Shown here: positions 1 through 6,211 of the stretch, piece after piece
Position numbering within the stretch: the stretch's first letter is position 1
Layout of the letters: each line of letters begins with the position of its first letter
Source of the DNA: Flavobacterium luminosum
Lineage (GTDB): Bacteria > Bacteroidota > Bacteroidia > Flavobacteriales > Flavobacteriaceae
Assembly (NCBI RefSeq): GCF_023635005.1
Contig: NZ_JAMLJM010000008.1
Location: 1-64,000, forward strand
Length of the DNA: 64,000 bases
Direction of reading: 5' to 3'
Position numbers and translations under genes: made by a program
The notes under the pieces: model-generated
Told to the model about the DNA's origin: nothing
Database searches by the model: none
Seen by the model: the letters and a program-made list of their open reading frames with translations, nothing else

Positions 1-147
1 GGAACTAGCATGCTGAACAGTCTTAATTGACCAATGACAAAATTTAGCTTTTATCTTTCTCTTTCTTCTGTTGAAATAAATTTATAAAATTTTCAAAGAA
101 CTTCCTTTTACAAACATAGGATGACAAAACAAAAACCAAATAAATAA

Positions 148-1326
148 ATGCCAAACAACTGGACAACATATAAACTTGAAAAAGTTGCTACTTTACAAAG
201 AGGATTTGATTTGCCTAATACTAAACGAACTGATGGCAAATATCCCGTTATTGCTGCCTCAGGCTTTAGTACTTGGCATAATGAATTTAAAGTTAAAGGA
301 CCAGGTGTTACAACTGGTCGTTCAGGAACATTAGGACAGGTTCATTTTGTCAAAGGAGATTTTTGGCCTCTAAATACTTCTTTATGGGTTAAAGATTTTC
401 ATGGTAATGATGAAAAGTTTATTTATTATTTTCTGAAGACATTAAATTTTGACGAATATAATTCAGGTACTAGTGTACCAACTTTAAACAGAAATGATGT
501 TCATAAATTAGATGTCACAATCCCTGATTTACAAGAACAAAAATCCATCGCCGCCATACTTTCCGCCATCGCCGACAAAATCGAAAACAACCTAGCCATC
601 AACAAAACCCTAGAAGAAATGGCTATGGCGTTATACAAACACTGGTTTGTAGATTTTGGTCCGTTTCAAGACGGCGAGTTTGTGGAAAGTGAGTTGGGTA
701 GGATTCCTAAGGGTTGGGAGGTGAAAAGTTTAGGTTGTATTGTTTCTGTTTTAGGAGGTTATGCTTTTAAATCTGCTTGGTTTCAAGAGACTGGAGTAAA
801 AGTTATAAAAATAAAAAACATAAACAATAATATTGTAGACATCAATAATTGTACGTGTATTTCAGAAGAAATTTCAAAAACTATAAATCCCAAATTTAGA
901 ATAGCAAAAGGAGATTTCTTAATTGCAATGACAGGTGCAGAAGTTGGAAAAGTTGGAGCCGTTCCTGATTATGGTCAAGAATTATGGTTGAATCAGCGTG
1001 TAGGTAAATTAGTAGATAAAGATTTAAAGAATGCTTCAATACTTATTGGTAAATTGTTGCAGACCTCCGATTTTTATAAAGTAATGCAAGGTTTGGCTTA
1101 TGGTAGTGCTCAGCCAAATATTAGCACATCTGATATTGAAAGCATTAAAATTGCATTACCAATAGATAAATCTATCTTAAACGATATTATTGAAGAGTTT
1201 GTTAGTTCTCATGAAATTATTATTCAAAATCTAACAGAAAACCAAACCCTAACCCAATTACGAGATACCTTGTTGCCTAAATTAATTAGTGGTGAGGTGC
1301 GGTTGAAAGAGTTTAGGGAAAGTTAA
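148..1326 (+). CDS. hsdS: Type I restriction-modification specificity subunit HsdS
   Basis: This 392-residue protein has the usual HsdS plan. A first target recognition domain (about residues 1-125) is followed by a central conserved helix region with EQKSIAAILSAIADKIE and ALYKHWFVDFGPF. A second recognition domain (about 185-345) and a closing conserved helix with LRDTLLPKLISGE follow. In the family, the two recognition domains read the two halves of the target and the helices set the spacing and bind HsdM. hsdR lies downstream at 3212, beyond two opposite-strand genes. hsdM is not visible and is expected to the left. The first 147 bases hold no convincing gene. Base composition is mosaic: the recognition domains are AT-rich, while the conserved parts are C-rich. 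Confidence 0.95.
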   Translation: MPNNWTTYKLEKVATLQRGFDLPNTKRTDGKYPVIAASGFSTWHNEFKVKGPGVTTGRSGTLGQVHFVKGDFWPLNTSLWVKDFHGNDEKFIYYFLKTLNFDEYNSGTSVPTLNRNDVHKLDVTIPDLQEQKSIAAILSAIADKIENNLAINKTLEEMAMALYKHWFVDFGPFQDGEFVESELGRIPKGWEVKSLGCIVSVLGGYAFKSAWFQETGVKVIKIKNINNNIVDINNCTCISEEISKTINPKFRIAKGDFLIAMTGAEVGKVGAVPDYGQELWLNQRVGKLVDKDLKNASILIGKLLQTSDFYKVMQGLAYGSAQPNISTSDIESIKIALPIDKSILNDIIEEFVSSHEIIIQNLTENQTLTQLRDTLLPKLISGEVRLKEFRES

Positions 1327-1391: not shown

Positions 1392-1412
1392 AAAAGGGCT
1401 TGTAGCCCTTTT
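1392..1412. terminator. Bidirectional hairpin terminator after hsdS
   Basis: AAAAGGGCT and AGCCCTTTT form a perfect 9-bp stem around a TGT loop. A-runs and T-runs flank it, so it can end both hsdS and the converging minus-strand operon whose stop codon begins at 1414. Confidence 0.8.
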
Positions 1413-2293
1413 TAAATTTCTAATGTTTGTAAGTACTCTGAGAATTTGATGTTGTTAGAATTAGCAATTTTTTCTGTTTCTTTTTCTAACGCATCGGGTG
1501 TGATGAATTCAAAAGTATCTTTGTAATTTTTGTAACTCAAATCAAACAATTCGTGTTGTTTGGTATTCTTTTCAGGTTCTTCAAAGGCGATTTTAATTTT
1601 ATTTACTTCTCCATTTACATTTGTAACAAATTTATGTAAAGCTTCGTGTATGATTTTAGTTTCATACAAATGATTTACAATAGTTTGCTCGCCTAAACTA
1701 AAATCAACTACCTGTATAGCATTAATTGCACCGTTTTTAGTAATCAAACTTACATCGGTAGCTTTTAAAATTCCTTGAAAAGTATGAGGATTAAAATGAT
1801 ATTTTAAGTTTGCTTTTTCGTCTAATCCTTCTTTTTCGAAATAAGGTTTGATTTTTTTAGCAAACGAGATATTTTGTTTTTTTATATCAATTGACAAAGA
1901 CTCACCTACAAAGTTGAAATAATATTGACTAAACTCTTTTTGAGTAAAAGTAACAGGTAAAGCTTCAGGTTTAGCAAATGATAAAACATTGTTGCTGTAC
2001 TTGCTCAAATAGTTGATGTAATCCGCTGTAAAAACATCATAAGCAGCTAAGAGTTTTTGCTGTTCTTTTAAGTTGTTCGTTTCAACAACTTTACTTTTTA
2101 TTTGCTGCAATGTTTTTAAAGCAAACTGACTAATTCCGTTATGATGAGGAGCAAGTTTGTCTAAAAGTTGAATCTTTGCTTTTGAATATTCGAAAAACAC
2201 CTTTTTTTCAGTTATAGCCAATACACCAACCACTACTTTTTCCAATGAAAAAGAGTTGGTTTGAATGCTTACAAGACTAAAAAAAGTTTTCAT
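1412..2293 (-). CDS. DUF3037-like partner of the HipA-like kinase
   Basis: A 293-residue soluble protein with no signal peptide. Its first 45 residues (FSLVSIQTN ... VVVGVLAIT) resemble the start of DUF3037, a family often found beside HipA-like kinases. The rest is alpha/beta and lysine-rich and I do not recognise it. Its ATG overlaps the stop of the upstream kinase gene (TAATG junction), so the two are almost certainly cotranscribed and translationally coupled. The pair lies antisense between hsdS and hsdR. Family assignment rests on weak N-terminal resemblance plus context. The biochemical role is unknown. Confidence 0.5.
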   Translation of the reverse strand: MKTFFSLVSIQTNSFSLEKVVVGVLAITEKKVFFEYSKAKIQLLDKLAPHHNGISQFALKTLQQIKSKVVETNNLKEQQKLLAAYDVFTADYINYLSKYSNNVLSFAKPEALPVTFTQKEFSQYYFNFVGESLSIDIKKQNISFAKKIKPYFEKEGLDEKANLKYHFNPHTFQGILKATDVSLITKNGAINAIQVVDFSLGEQTIVNHLYETKIIHEALHKFVTNVNGEVNKIKIAFEEPEKNTKQHELFDLSYKNYKDTFEFITPDALEKETEKIANSNNIKFSEYLQTLEI

Positions 2294-3135
2294 TATATGG
2301 GTGTTTTACTACTTATTATTGTGGATTTAACCTTATCAATTAGCACTTCATCACTCAGGTAATCCTGAATTTTTTGAGCTAAACTTGGGGTTAATTTCCA
2401 AATATCTTCTAACTGCGAGATTACTTGGTTTATGCAATCTTGATGATTAGTTTTCAACAAAAGTACAAAATTATCAACAATTTCTACAAATTTTGTATAA
2501 TCAAAATAACGAATGACACTTTTGTAATAATCCGTTTCGTGTAATTTGTTGGTAGTGTCAAAGGGCATTTTAGGATTAAAAATTCCTATTTGATTTATTC
2601 CTCCAAATATAAAAGCATGGTCAAATGCCACAATTTGTTGTTTGGTTTCAACCTTGTTTAAGAGTAAATTGTAGTTAAACCCAGGATTAAAAAACTTACC
2701 TCTATCAACGTTATTAATCCACAAGTCAAACATGGCAATTCTTATAATATCTTCTGGATTTAAAATAGAATTAAATTCTTTTCTACTGTTGCATTTTTGT
2801 AAATCATTTACTTCGGAAGCAGTAGCTAAATTTTTAGATCCAAAACATATATCGTTAACTTTTAATCTTTTGTTACGCTTAATTTTTTCTTTTATGAGTG
2901 TACCCTCGGCAACTTCTACCAAAGCAATGTCAGGTGTTGGAATGTTTAATTTTTTAAGTAAATAATGAGCTACAATTTCATAAGCCAAACAATTTACTTC
3001 AACATGATTAATGCTTGTTATATACTTACAAAAATAAATAGCATCATTCGAACACACGAAACGCAATGGCGAATGTCCGTCAGTTTCTTCTTCTTTTATA
3101 AGATATTGTGTTTGAATTTTAGGGATAATAATCAT
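2293..3135 (-). CDS. HipA-like kinase (HipA_2 type)
   Basis: This 280-residue protein shows a small kinase fold of the HipA-like type. It has a lysine in FCKY (residue 37) at the nucleotide site and a catalytic-loop-like FDLWINNVDRG (D137, N142, D144, R145). N156 precedes LLL, and a DH pair (172-173) sits at the metal-binding position. It lacks the N-subdomain-1 of classical HipA and is much shorter than the roughly 440 residues of HipA. No HipB-like HTH antitoxin is adjacent; its operon partner is the DUF3037-like gene. It is divergent from hsdR, with a perfect palindrome between the two. Role unknown: a toxin-like or regulatory kinase tied to the restriction system is an inference. Confidence 0.75.
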   Translation of the reverse strand: MIIIPKIQTQYLIKEEETDGHSPLRFVCSNDAIYFCKYITSINHVEVNCLAYEIVAHYLLKKLNIPTPDIALVEVAEGTLIKEKIKRNKRLKVNDICFGSKNLATASEVNDLQKCNSRKEFNSILNPEDIIRIAMFDLWINNVDRGKFFNPGFNYNLLLNKVETKQQIVAFDHAFIFGGINQIGIFNPKMPFDTTNKLHETDYYKSVIRYFDYTKFVEIVDNFVLLLKTNHQDCINQVISQLEDIWKLTPSLAQKIQDYLSDEVLIDKVKSTIISSKTPI

Positions 3136-3138
3136 TTT

Positions 3139-3152
3139 AAATAGGCCTATTT
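3139..3152. promoter_or_regulatory. 14-bp perfect palindrome between the HipA-like kinase gene and hsdR
   Basis: AAATAGGCCTATTT reads the same on both strands. It begins 3 bases upstream of the kinase start codon and lies about 60 bases upstream of the hsdR start. Position and symmetry suggest an operator for one or both transcripts. The binding protein is unknown. Confidence 0.5.
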
Positions 3153-3211
3153 TGTAGTAAATATAGTATTTATATCAAAAAAACACTATTTTAGGGCATT
3201 ATTTTTAAGTT

Positions 3212-6211
3212 ATGACAACAGAAGCCAAAATAGAACAAGCTACGATTGACTGGTTAACCGATATGGGATATGAACATATTCACGGTACCACTTTTACGTT
3301 TCCTGAAAATGAAGTCGTAGATAAAGCTACTTTGTTAGCGTTTATACAAGAGCAACATCCGCATTTGCCTGCGGAGTTGTATCCGTTAATTGTGGCTGAG
3401 TTTGTCAATAACAAAGGCGCTGATTTGTTGTATCGCAACCGTGATTTTCATTTGAAGTTAACCAAAGGCTTAGATTACGAATACCAAGACGCCAACGGTA
3501 ATGAAAAAGCGGTGCATGTGTATCCTATCGATTTTCAAAACCCAGAGAAGAATACGTTTTGGGTAGTGAATCAACTCAGTATTAAAGGCAAAAACAAACG
3601 CCGCCCTGATGTGATTGTGTACATTAACGGTTTGCCTTTAGTCGTTTTTGAATTGAAAAATTGGTTTGATGAAAACACCAATTTGCAGGAAGCGTTTAAT
3701 CAGATCCAACATTACACCAAAGATATTCCGTTGTTGTTTGAATACAACGTAGCCACAATCGTAAGCGATGGTAACGTAGCCCAACACGGTATGTATAATG
3801 CTTCTAACGAATGGTATGCCGCTTGGAAAAGTATCAATGGCACTACCATCGTAGAAGACGATTTTCAAATGCATACGTTGTTATTTGGTTTGTTTCCTAA
3901 AGAACGTTTACTGAATTACATTAAAAACTTTGTCTTTTTTGAAGACCATAACGGCACTTTGATTAAGAAAGGCGCGAAATACCATCAATTCTTTGGCGTT
4001 AACTTTGCCGTGGATGCAGCTAAAAAAGCAATACGCCCTTATGGAGATGGACGCATCGGGGTGATTTGGCATACGCAAGGAAGCGGTAAAAGTATTTCCA
4101 TGGCTATTTATGCAGGAATCTTACGTAGCCTACCCGAATTGAAAAACCCAACTATTGTGGTTCAAGTGGATAGAAGCGATTTGGATTTTCAGTTGTATGA
4201 AAACTTTGTGTTGGCCAAAGACTTAGTAGGCGATGTACAACATGCCGATTCCACCGATGATTTAAGACGACTGCTTTCGGCAGGAAGTGGTGGGGTTATT
4301 TTTACAACCATAGAAAAGTTCCGTTTGAAATCAGGAAATGAAGATTCGTTAGGCGAATTAGAACATCCTGTTTTATCGGAACGCGAAAATATTATTGTGA
4401 TGGCCGATGAAGCCCACAGAACGCAATACGGTTTGTTAGATGGTTTTGCCTCTAATTTACGTAAAGCGTTACCGAATGCTTCGTTTATAGGCTTTACAGG
4501 AACGCCAGTAGATAGCAAAGATGCCGATACACAAGAAGTGTTTGGGGAAACCATTCACGTATATGACATCAAACAAGCGGTAGATGACAAAGCAACAGTT
4601 CCAATTTATTACGAACCTCGTTTAGCCAAACTGCATTTAGCTAATGAAAATTTAGATTCGGATGTTGATACCTTAACTTGGGAACAAGAAGACAGTTCTA
4701 ATTTGAAATGGGCGGCTTTAGAAGATGCGGCAGGTTCGCAAGAACGTGTTGAAAAGATTGCTAAAGATATATTGAGTCATTTTACCAATCGTACGGAAAC
4801 CTTACCAGGGAAAGCGATGATTGTTTGTATGAGTCGCCGAAACAGTGTAAAAATGTACGATGCTTTATCACAATTAGAAGGTTGTCCTGAAATTGCTGTT
4901 GTGATGACAGGAAATATTTCTAAAGACCCAGTAGAATGGAATCCACACATCAGAACGCAAGAAGCTACCGAAGCTTTAAAGAAACGTTTCAGAAATCCGA
5001 AAGACCCGTTGCAAATTGTAATTGTTCGTGATATGTGGTTAACAGGTTTTGATGCGCCTTGTGTGCATACTATGTATGTCGATAAGATCATGAAAGGGCA
5101 TAACTTAATGCAAGCCATTACCAGAACCAATCGTGTGTTTAAAGATAAGCCTTCGGGGGTTATTGTAGATTACATTGGCATTGGCGACCAGTTACGAAAA
5201 GCAACCGATAAATATACAGGTGGTGGAGGAAAAGGAGAGCCAACCATTGATATGGAACAAGCCTTGAATATGTTTTTAAATCAAGTAGAAGCTTGTAAAA
5301 ATATGCTGCCTGAAACCATAGATTACAGTCAGTGGAAAGCCTTGCGTGAAAGTGATAAAATGCTGTTGGTCAAACAAGCCTTAAATGCGTTATTGAAATA
5401 CGATGAGGTAGCCGACCAATTTATGATGGAAGAAAAGAAATTAACAGGTTTGTTATCCATTGTAAAATCGCAACCTGAAATTCAGGAATATGCTATTGAT
5501 ATTTTGTTTTCGCAACACGTATCCAAAGCCATACGAAACGCCAAAACACCAAAGGGAAACGGCAGAGCCACTCAAAACGAAATTAAAGAACTCATTAGTA
5601 GAAGTATTGAATCGGATGATATTATCGATGTATTTGCAATGGCAGGTATTGAAAAAGCCGATATTTCTATTTTAGACGAGCAGTTTTTATTGGGCGTTAA
5701 AAAAGACAAAGACAGTATCGCCATTAAGATAGAACTCTTAAAAAATATTTTGAAAGACGAAATCAGAATGCGTTTGCCTCAAAATATCAAGAAATATACT
5801 TCGCTAAAAGAAGAATTAGAAAAAGTAATTGACCGTTATCACGCCAACGCTATTGATTCCTACACCACAATAGCCGAATTAGTAGAACGTGCCAAAGAAA
5901 TGCAAGACGAAGACAAACGTAAATCGGAATTAGGCTTGTCGGATGAAGAGTTGGCATTCTATGATATTCTAGCAGCCAAAAAAAACATCATCAACGAAGC
6001 AGGACCCATTCAAGACGTAGTCCACAGCGTAGTAAAAGCGGTAAAAAGCAACCTACAAATCGACTGGACGAATAAAGAAGACGCCAAAGCTGCTATTCGT
6101 TTAGCCGTTAAAAAAGAATTGCGAGGAAAAGTAAGTATATTAGAACTAAACGCTATTCTTCAAGAAATTATGGAACAGGCAGAAGGGCAGTTTAAAGAGT
6201 GGAGGGCTTAA
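3212..6211 (+). CDS. hsdR: Type I restriction enzyme motor/nuclease subunit HsdR
   Basis: This 999-residue HsdR combines an N-terminal PD-(D/E)xK nuclease (D133, E147-x-K149 in LPLVVFELK) with a superfamily 2 translocase. It has Walker A HTQGSGKS near 287-294, DEAH at 399-402, motif III FTGTP, motif V LTGFDAP and motif VI QAITRTNR. A C-terminal helical region follows that in the family contacts the HsdM/HsdS core. All catalytic motifs are present, so cleavage should be active. It is separated from hsdS by the antisense kinase pair, so hsdR probably has its own promoter in 3136-3211. Confidence 0.96.
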   Translation: MTTEAKIEQATIDWLTDMGYEHIHGTTFTFPENEVVDKATLLAFIQEQHPHLPAELYPLIVAEFVNNKGADLLYRNRDFHLKLTKGLDYEYQDANGNEKAVHVYPIDFQNPEKNTFWVVNQLSIKGKNKRRPDVIVYINGLPLVVFELKNWFDENTNLQEAFNQIQHYTKDIPLLFEYNVATIVSDGNVAQHGMYNASNEWYAAWKSINGTTIVEDDFQMHTLLFGLFPKERLLNYIKNFVFFEDHNGTLIKKGAKYHQFFGVNFAVDAAKKAIRPYGDGRIGVIWHTQGSGKSISMAIYAGILRSLPELKNPTIVVQVDRSDLDFQLYENFVLAKDLVGDVQHADSTDDLRRLLSAGSGGVIFTTIEKFRLKSGNEDSLGELEHPVLSERENIIVMADEAHRTQYGLLDGFASNLRKALPNASFIGFTGTPVDSKDADTQEVFGETIHVYDIKQAVDDKATVPIYYEPRLAKLHLANENLDSDVDTLTWEQEDSSNLKWAALEDAAGSQERVEKIAKDILSHFTNRTETLPGKAMIVCMSRRNSVKMYDALSQLEGCPEIAVVMTGNISKDPVEWNPHIRTQEATEALKKRFRNPKDPLQIVIVRDMWLTGFDAPCVHTMYVDKIMKGHNLMQAITRTNRVFKDKPSGVIVDYIGIGDQLRKATDKYTGGGGKGEPTIDMEQALNMFLNQVEACKNMLPETIDYSQWKALRESDKMLLVKQALNALLKYDEVADQFMMEEKKLTGLLSIVKSQPEIQEYAIDILFSQHVSKAIRNAKTPKGNGRATQNEIKELISRSIESDDIIDVFAMAGIEKADISILDEQFLLGVKKDKDSIAIKIELLKNILKDEIRMRLPQNIKKYTSLKEELEKVIDRYHANAIDSYTTIAELVERAKEMQDEDKRKSELGLSDEELAFYDILAAKKNIINEAGPIQDVVHSVVKAVKSNLQIDWTNKEDAKAAIRLAVKKELRGKVSILELNAILQEIMEQAEGQFKEWRA

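What the first reader, a model, noticed from the sequence alone, without database searches (positions are those of the whole stretch)
1412..3152. HipA-like kinase and DUF3037-like partner embedded antisense between hsdS and hsdR
Seen: a two-gene, translationally coupled module (kinase motifs D137/N142/D144, DH 172) sits between two type I restriction genes and faces hsdR. Known: HipA-like kinases can act as toxins or regulators, and defence loci often carry embedded accessory modules. Inference: it may guard or control the restriction system, for example acting if the system is lost or subverted. The lack of a HipB-type antitoxin makes the DUF3037-like protein the natural candidate partner.
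Basis: partly seen in the sequence, partly recalled or inferred. Interest (0 to 1): 0.65.

Follow-up and report, generated by a model that had tools for sequence, protein, structure and literature searches.

The report
Kinase toxin-antitoxin cassette inside restriction locus
Two genes lying backwards inside a bacterial restriction-enzyme locus are a divergent copy of a recently described phage-defence pair, a HipA-like kinase and its probable DUF3037 antitoxin, sitting in a slot that related bacteria fill with different cargo.

Summary
Two minus-strand genes (K, 280 aa, 2293-3135; P, 293 aa, 1412-2293; TAATG stop-start junction) lie antisense between hsdS and hsdR. K is a HipA_2 kinase that also matches PADLOC PDC-M66A. 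P matches nothing itself, but 10 of its 13 first homologues match DUF3037. The pair is therefore a divergent PDC-M66 (DS-6/HipAD) system, reported in two papers as a toxin-antitoxin-like phage defence. It is an autonomous cassette: 79 of 80 named K loci carry P, and standalone copies share its upstream motif and hairpin. Type I restriction genes lie within 8 kb in 18 of 80 loci against 0 of 40 control windows: enriched in, not dedicated to, restriction loci. In the antisense embedded form, a conserved stretch in front of hsdR comes with the cassette; 10 related loci without the pair lack it. Cassette and hsdR have discordant histories. 'Guarding' the restriction system is unsupported; co-regulation of hsdR is the one novel, testable reading.

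The parts
148..1326 (+). hsdS, type I specificity subunit (host locus, not part of the cassette)
   Evidence: Pfam Methylase_S 3.1e-34; PADLOC Specificity_I 2.1e-110
1392..1412 (.). terminator-like hairpin between the converging hsdS and P genes
   Evidence: terminator scan, minus strand; RNA fold of 1375-1425 z -2.7 on + and -3.8 on -; a similar hairpin follows P in 7 of 8 other loci looked at by eye (not L022)
1412..2293 (-). P: divergent DUF3037 protein, 293 aa, probable antitoxin; N-terminal DUF3037 part (about 1-130), C-terminal PD-(D/E)XK-like part (142-288) without a conserved catalytic motif
   Evidence: DUF3037 through homologues; fold, motif
2293..3135 (-). K: HipA_2-family kinase, 280 aa, probable toxin/effector; TAATG junction with P
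3136..3211 (.). divergent intergenic region between the K and hsdR starts. TGTAGTAAATATA at 3153-3165 (K side) is exact in 3 other embedded loci and 3 of 4 standalone ones (1 change in the fourth); an hsdR-side stretch (about 3174-3207) is conserved in the embedded loci only
3212..6211 (+). hsdR, type I restriction subunit (host locus, not part of the cassette)
   Evidence: Pfam HSDR_N, SWI2_SNF2, T1RH-like_C; PADLOC REase_I 1.6e-260

Best explanation
The pair is a divergent Bacteroidota member of the PDC-M66 / DS-6 / HipAD kind: a kinase toxin (K) held inactive by its DUF3037 partner (P), acting as a standalone, probably abortive, phage-defence module. It lies in the hsdS-hsdR junction of a type I restriction locus, a recurrent cargo slot. 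Likely steps: K and P are made from one transcript with coupled translation (inferred from TAATG); P binds K and blocks it, the N-terminal DUF3037 part being the essential one (inferred from co-occurrence and decay patterns; toxicity on DUF3037 loss is published for a relative); infection releases K (inferred, trigger unknown); K phosphorylates an unknown target and stops growth (inferred; a catalytic residue is needed for DS-6 defence, published). Shown here by sequence: family identity, near-constant pairing, conserved active site, purifying selection, autonomy of the cassette, its exchange at the slot, and a hairpin plus conserved divergent stretch that would separate hsdR transcription from hsdM-hsdS (transcripts not seen).
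For: K: HipA_2 3.2e-16, HipA_2 in 55 of 55 aligned sequences, PDC-M66A in 53 of 55, both counts including the window; model pLDDT 95.2 aligns over most of its length with CtkA (Z 15.3), PI4KII, CotH, a HipS-HipT complex chain (Z 12.4) and a HipBA chain (Z 12.0). P: DUF3037 in 10 of 13 homologues and 18 of 57 sequences, PDC-M66B in 7 of 57; the P profile finds the protein RefSeq calls DUF3037 next to a 'HipA family kinase' on a Pantoea plasmid (hmmsearch 2.1e-8; hhalign probability 87, E 3.6e-6 over 230 columns; the kinases 2.7e-19). Pairing: P present in 79 of 80 named K loci; the miss ends at a contig end (adjacency listed). Decay: of 94 loci 87 have K intact by my rule, and 86 of these keep the N-terminal part of P (the other is that same contig-end locus); 6 have K broken with P intact and none the reverse. 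Papers, passages read: deletion of DUF3037 is toxic and deletion of the HipA kinase abolishes defence against Bas51 (PMC12548924); a catalytic mutation abolishes DS-6 defence (PMC13092281).
Against: P itself has no significant Pfam, NCBIfam or PADLOC hit; only 18 of 57 homologues hit DUF3037 at E 0.01. The short DUF3037 protein of Bacteroides finegoldii is not found by the P profile with hmmsearch and reaches only probability 67 with hhalign. 19 of 55 K sequences also match PDC-M03A, another candidate system's kinase, though the window K does not. No DUF1829 was found in P, which DS-6B has. P-like genes with no kinase detected exist (L107, L108), both near contig ends. 4 of the 6 broken-K loci are MAGs, where frameshifts may be errors; 6 against 0 is only about p 0.03 by a two-sided sign test (worked out by hand). 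No activity was tested.
Confidence: 0.78

Rival explanations
1. Co-regulator reading: P (alone or with K) binds the 76-bp divergent region and sets hsdR expression together with its own, so that restriction and kinase release are linked.
For: In 4 of the 5 embedded loci (the fifth, L159, has a broken K and was not in the alignment) the K-hsdR intergenic region is 82% identical per column, first 9 nt of hsdR included, although P is only 58-73% identical among them. A 17-nt hsdR-side probe taken from the window matches the other embedded loci with 0-3 changes (L159 with 2), 10 related hsdR loci without the pair with 6-8, and 4 standalone cassettes with 5-6. A hairpin follows hsdS, so hsdR probably has its own promoter here. 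AlphaFold3 predicted contact of DS-6B with DNA (PMC13092281). The C-terminal part of P has a fold seen in DNA enzymes.
Against: The window's 14-bp palindrome is not conserved. The best-conserved block, TGTAGTAAATATA, also precedes standalone K genes, so it is explained by K's own promoter. In 13 of 18 loci with a type I gene within 3 kb the pair is on the same strand as that gene, with no divergent arrangement. The fold match of P is weak (best Z 7.9). No binding or transcript data.
Confidence: 0.2
2. Guardian reading: the kinase senses loss, modification or inhibition of the type I enzyme (for example by anti-restriction proteins) and then arrests the cell.
For: Enrichment near type I genes (18 of 80 against 0 of 40), including stop-start overlaps with hsdS in L044 and L101.
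Against: 62 of 80 loci have no detected type I gene within 8 kb. Standalone copies are closely related and carry the same upstream motif and hairpin. Among 16 junctions of this hsdR family the pair is in 5; the others hold other genes or nothing. Published relatives were shown on cloned operons with no restriction gene mentioned in the passages read.
Confidence: 0.07
3. Addiction module: a toxin-antitoxin pair kept because it stabilises the restriction locus or island against loss.
For: Near-constant K-P pairing and one-sided decay fit toxin-antitoxin logic.
Against: Most relatives found are not at such a locus; pair-bearing and pair-free versions of this locus coexist among close hsdR relatives, which strong addiction would oppose.
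Confidence: 0.12

Closest known systems
PDC-M66 / DS-6 / HipAD (HipA-like kinase + DUF3037; PMC12548924, PMC13092281, passages read)
   Same: Two-gene order kinase then DUF3037 protein, overlapping or nearly touching genes, conserved kinase active site, no HipB
   Different: K only about 19-26% identical to the more remote members aligned here; P below detection by the DUF3037 and PDC-M66B profiles and without detectable DUF1829; antisense inside hsdS-hsdR with a conserved divergent stretch in front of hsdR
DarTG2 embedded between hsdS and hsdR, with RptR (PMC12255303, passages read)
   Same: A toxin-antitoxin defence module in the same hsdS-hsdR slot; that paper calls the site a potential recombination hotspot
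   Different: Another toxin family (ADP-ribosylation of DNA, as a title in its reference list says); a separate repressor, RptR; orientation relative to hsd not checked here
TgvAB inside the VPI-2 type I locus (PMC11411939, passages read)
   Same: Two-gene anti-phage module inside a type I locus that protects without the restriction genes
   Different: GmrSD-like type IV restriction, not a kinase
HipBA / HipBST
   Same: Kinase fold (HipBA chain Z 12.0; HipS-HipT complex chain Z 12.4)
   Different: No HipB or HipS found; the partner is a DUF3037 protein; K (280 aa) is shorter than the HipA chains (about 400-440 residues)

Membership tests
PDC-M66 / DS-6 / HipAD | HipA-like kinase matching PDC-M66A | tested here: met
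   Window K PDC-M66A 2.1e-8; 53 of 55 aligned sequences
PDC-M66 / DS-6 / HipAD | Adjacent DUF3037 (PDC-M66B) protein | tested here: met
   Not by window P alone; through homologues: DUF3037 10 of 13 and 18 of 57, PDC-M66B 7 of 57; profile match to a RefSeq DUF3037 protein beside a HipA kinase
PDC-M66 / DS-6 / HipAD | Two-gene operon, kinase first | tested here: met
   TAATG junction; P follows K in 79 of 80 named loci
PDC-M66 / DS-6 / HipAD | Intact kinase catalytic residues | tested here: met
   D137, N142, D144, N154, N156, D172 invariant in 11 sequences found by homology without a motif demand; the larger set was partly selected for the motif
PDC-M66 / DS-6 / HipAD | DUF1829 C-terminal domain as in DS-6B | tested here: inconclusive
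   No DUF1829 hit in window P or listed among 57 sequences at E 0.01; partners of 126-127 aa also exist, so the domain is probably not defining
PDC-M66 / DS-6 / HipAD | Kinase toxic without partner; pair protects against phage | not testable with these tools
   Published for relatives only: toxicity and protection for the Retron-Sda1 operon, protection for DS-6
HipBA | HTH antitoxin HipB next to hipA | tested here: not met
   P has no HTH family hit; the neighbouring genes are hsdS and hsdR
HipBST | Separate HipS and HipB proteins with kinase HipT | tested here: not met
   The only partner gene is P, with no HipS or HipB family hit and with DUF3037 homologues
Type I restriction-modification subunit | Pair is an M, S or R component | tested here: not met
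   No such hit for K or P; 62 of 80 homologous loci lack detected type I genes within 8 kb

The most novel reading that the evidence does not exclude
By bringing a hairpin after hsdS and a divergent promoter region before hsdR, the antisense cassette has taken over hsdR expression: the same antitoxin (or kinase-antitoxin complex) that controls the kinase also controls hsdR, so one phage trigger would release both a growth-arresting kinase and a burst of restriction subunit.
Probability: 0.18. Interest if true: 0.62.

Novelty: new member of a known kind. Interest (0 to 1): 0.33.

Why it matters
It extends the HipA-DUF3037 defence family to divergent Bacteroidota members whose partner the current profiles miss, and gives a natural series (no gene, GIY-YIG gene, kinase pair, other cargo) at one hsdS-hsdR slot with discordant cassette and hsdR histories. 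If the divergent stretch does tie hsdR to the antitoxin, it would be a worked case of one defence system regulating the one it is embedded in.

Tried and rejected
1) The 14-bp palindrome AAATAGGCCTATTT upstream of K looked like an operator, but it is absent from L016, L019, L021 and the standalone copies; rejected as chance. 2) Viral contigs with window K as query: 17 pattern matches, no relative; with alignment A4: 11 relatives, of which 9 have a P match (not L229, L234). 3) Plasmids with window K or P: none; with a homologue: 8 records, of which I opened 2. Phages: one weak K match, Salmonella phage SW-37 (E 7e-3), with a P match beside it. 4) Nuclease activity of P: fold-like only (best Z 7.9; Foldseek best E 0.035); the consensus D of the second strand is S182 in the window (D in 33 of 57) and no conserved (D/E)xK follows (motif recalled), so a nuclease is unlikely. 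5) Antisense orientation as a requirement: 13 of 18 loci with a type I gene within 3 kb are same-strand. 6) Whether all embedded P sequences form one clade is neither shown nor rejected (AU p 0.42). 7) By sequence against solved structures, K finds only Shewanella HipA at E 0.068 and P nothing meaningful. 8) K also has sub-threshold Pfam matches to AlwI and CotH, not pursued.

Caveats on counts: the 80 named loci are the best 80 of 177 relatives and were found with a pattern containing the catalytic motif, so motif conservation among them is partly built in. Type I genes were detected with one hsdR, one hsdS and one hsdM query (that hsdM was picked by a recalled NPP[YF] motif and confirmed as N6_Mtase/HsdM_N); divergent systems are missed, and an hsdM-only hit may be another methylase. 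Some loci are cut by contig ends. The AU-tested groups were named after the identities had been seen.

Full report
Observation. The two ORFs exist as described. K (280 aa) spans 2293-3135 and P (293 aa) 1412-2293, both on the minus strand, between hsdS (148-1326, +) and hsdR (3212-6211, +). The K stop and the P start overlap in TAATG (read), so K is the upstream gene. Pfam confirms the host genes and gives K HipA_2 at 3.2e-16; the best Pfam hit of P has E 0.072. NCBIfam gives nothing for either. PADLOC gives K PDC-M66A at 2.1e-8 and P nothing. One K match exists in the genome at E 0.001.

Kinase. In 11 sequences found by homology, D137, N142, D144, R145, N154, N156 and D172 are invariant. In 55 sequences K37, E53, N154 and N156 are invariant and D172 is at least 90% conserved; D137, N142 and D144 are invariant there too, but most of that set was found with a pattern that demands them. 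All 55 match HipA_2 and 53 match PDC-M66A; 19 also match PDC-M03A, another candidate system, though the window K does not. The AlphaFold2 model (pLDDT 95.2, pTM 0.93) matches kinase folds over most of its length: CtkA Z 15.3 (rmsd 4.3, 233 aligned), PI4KII, CotH, a HipS-HipT complex chain Z 12.4, a HipBA chain Z 12.0; Foldseek best E 1.7e-5. The substrate is unknown.

Partner. P by itself is below profile detection. Of the 14 sequences of its first alignment, 10 match DUF3037 at E up to 0.1 (best 6.8e-7), the window not among them; of 57 in the larger one, 18 do at E up to 0.01. PDC-M66B is matched by 3 of 14 and 7 of 57. The P profile finds a Pantoea plasmid protein that RefSeq calls DUF3037 and that follows a 'HipA family kinase': hmmsearch 2.1e-8, hhalign probability 87 and E 3.6e-6 over 230 columns; the kinase aligns with the K profile at 2.7e-19. 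A Bacteroides finegoldii plasmid carries a kinase plus a 127-aa DUF3037 protein; it aligns with P residues 5-129 at probability 67, E 5.3e-5, but hmmsearch with the P profile does not find it. The P model (pLDDT 91, pTM 0.60) has a C-terminal part, 142-288, that resembles PD-(D/E)XK folds such as Can2, EndoMS, XisH and ERCC1 (best Z 7.9; no Foldseek match under E 0.001). The catalytic motif is not conserved. A dead, possibly DNA-binding, domain is an inference from this weak match.

Pairing and decay. Of 80 named K loci, 79 carry P; the exception, L094, is at a contig end (positions). Over 94 loci (80 named, the window, 13 unnamed) K is intact by my coverage rule in 87; 86 of these keep the N-terminal part of P, 3 of them as a short P of 126-127 aa (L028, L030, L065), and the exception is L094. 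Six loci (L016, L024, L043, L049, L159, L185) have K broken with P intact, one (L095) has both broken, and none has K intact with P lost. Four of the six are metagenome assemblies, so part may be error. The direction fits K as toxin and the DUF3037 part as antitoxin. dN/dS is 0.10-0.14 for K and 0.07-0.17 for P in close pairs. P-like genes without a detected kinase occur in L107 (right after hsdR) and L108, both near contig ends.

Literature. Three held papers contain 'DUF3037', one of them on Arabidopsis. PMC12548924 (passages read) reports Retron-Sda1 beside a HipA-like kinase and a DUF3037 gene, called PDC-M66 by PADLOC: deleting the kinase abolishes defence against Bas51, deleting DUF3037 is toxic, and the retron parts are not needed. 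PMC13092281 (passages read) reports DS-6, renamed HipAD: a HipA-related kinase and a DUF3037-DUF1829 protein, a catalytic mutation abolishing defence, and predicted contacts between the two proteins and with DNA. It cites Brenes and Laub 2025, which I did not see. Modules inside type I loci are known: DarTG2 between hsdS and hsdR (PMC12255303, passages, which calls the site a potential recombination hotspot); TgvAB, with RloF cited as lying between hsdR and hsdS (PMC11411939, passages). The preprint by Payne and colleagues on embedded defences was seen only as cited in other papers. Searches on embedding, HipAD, hsdS/hsdR and HipA gave no listed paper that I recognised as describing this pair inside a type I locus; I opened only the four papers named here, and preprints and most subscription papers are not held.

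Context. With one query each for hsdR, hsdS and hsdM, 18 of 80 named loci have a type I gene within 8 kb (15 within 3 kb, 11 within 500 bp), against 0 of 40 twenty-kb control windows (Fisher p 0.0006 for 8 kb). Among the 92 loci scanned (80 named, 12 unnamed; window and L159 not in this set) 18 have a type I gene within 3 kb: 13 with the pair on the same strand as that gene, 5 opposite; in L044 and L101 hsdS and K overlap. So the pair is enriched near type I loci but mostly lives elsewhere. In the genus, 17 of 398 genomes have a K relative; 6 loci are at least 55% identical (one, G771, a broken copy), and 3 of these (the window, G971, G771) are in this hsd locus.

The slot. In 398 genus genomes 14 loci, the window's included, have an hsdR at least 79% identical to the window's (the L171 copy is broken). 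With L016 and L019 added, 16 hsdS-hsdR junctions can be compared: the kinase pair in 5 (window, L016, L019, L021/L160, L159), a GIY-YIG gene in 4 (L157, L164, L168; L166), other genes in 2 (L158; L171 with UvrD), a CBS-domain gene at a contig start with no hsdS seen in 1 (L167), and no gene in 4 (L161, L162, L163, L165). In L159 K is split by about 1.6 kb holding three other ORFs, one of them weakly SecB-like. The hsdM-hsdS interval is also variable.

Exchange. Window hsdR is 95-96% identical to those of L021 and L159, whose P is only 58% and 53% identical; it is 81% identical to that of L016, whose P is 69%. The AU test rejects window+L021+L159 as one clade for P (p 3e-7) and window+L016 for hsdR (p 9e-30) (groups named after seeing the identities). 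Cassette and hsdR have therefore been reassorted at this junction.

Architecture. A hairpin at 1392-1412 lies between the converging genes and a similar one follows P in 7 of 8 other loci looked at, standalone ones included. In four embedded loci the K-hsdR intergenic region is conserved (82% per column). TGTAGTAAATATA is exact in L016, L019, L021, L018, L020 and L023, has one change in standalone L017, three in L159, and is absent from L022. The hsdR-side stretch is conserved only in embedded loci: 0-3 changes in 17 nt, against 6-8 in 10 loci without the pair and 5-6 in 4 standalone cassettes. So the cassette seems to carry its own promoter and terminator signals and, when embedded antisense, probably a promoter for hsdR. 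These are sequence patterns; no transcript was seen.

Conclusion. An ordinary but divergent member of a known defence kind, in a known kind of slot. The guard idea has no direct support. The coupling of hsdR to the cassette's divergent stretch is the part worth testing.

Noticed in passing
L242 (own genome contig C3) 232-3477, with window 1-148: The single hsdM hit of this genome (HsdM_N) is near the start of another contig, followed by an IrrE/HTH peptidase gene and a gene with a sub-threshold PIN hit, then what looks by eye like a transposase end. With hsdS at the window's start this suggests hsdM-(second toxin-antitoxin-like pair)-(insertion element)-hsdS; the contigs were not joined.
   Followed up: partly
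L159 8773-10367: An insert with three ORFs splits the kinase gene while P stays intact; one ORF has a sub-threshold SecB hit (6e-5) and two have none, which recalls toxin-antitoxin-chaperone modules. Newer cargo may have replaced part of older cargo in the same slot.
   Followed up: partly
L107 9668-10585; L108 9374-10492: DUF3037-like P genes with no kinase detected, one directly after hsdR, one beside a SocA/Panacea antitoxin-domain gene (3e-22); P may have partners other than HipA kinases.
   Followed up: partly
L017 13631-17715; L020 13842-15164: Two standalone copies lie near other likely defence genes: in L017 a UvrD helicase and an OLD-TOPRIM ATPase pair (Gabija-like by recall), in L020 a UvrD-type helicase part.
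   Followed up: partly
L157 1727-2092; L164 4151-4519; L166 3925-4284; L168 6468-6776: Small GIY-YIG nuclease genes recur in the same hsdS-hsdR slot (all four confirmed by Pfam).
   Followed up: partly
L028 10795-11178; L030 7521-7904; L065 10805-11185: Partner proteins reduced to the N-terminal part (126-127 aa) next to intact kinases; natural truncations for mapping the antitoxin domain.
   Followed up: partly
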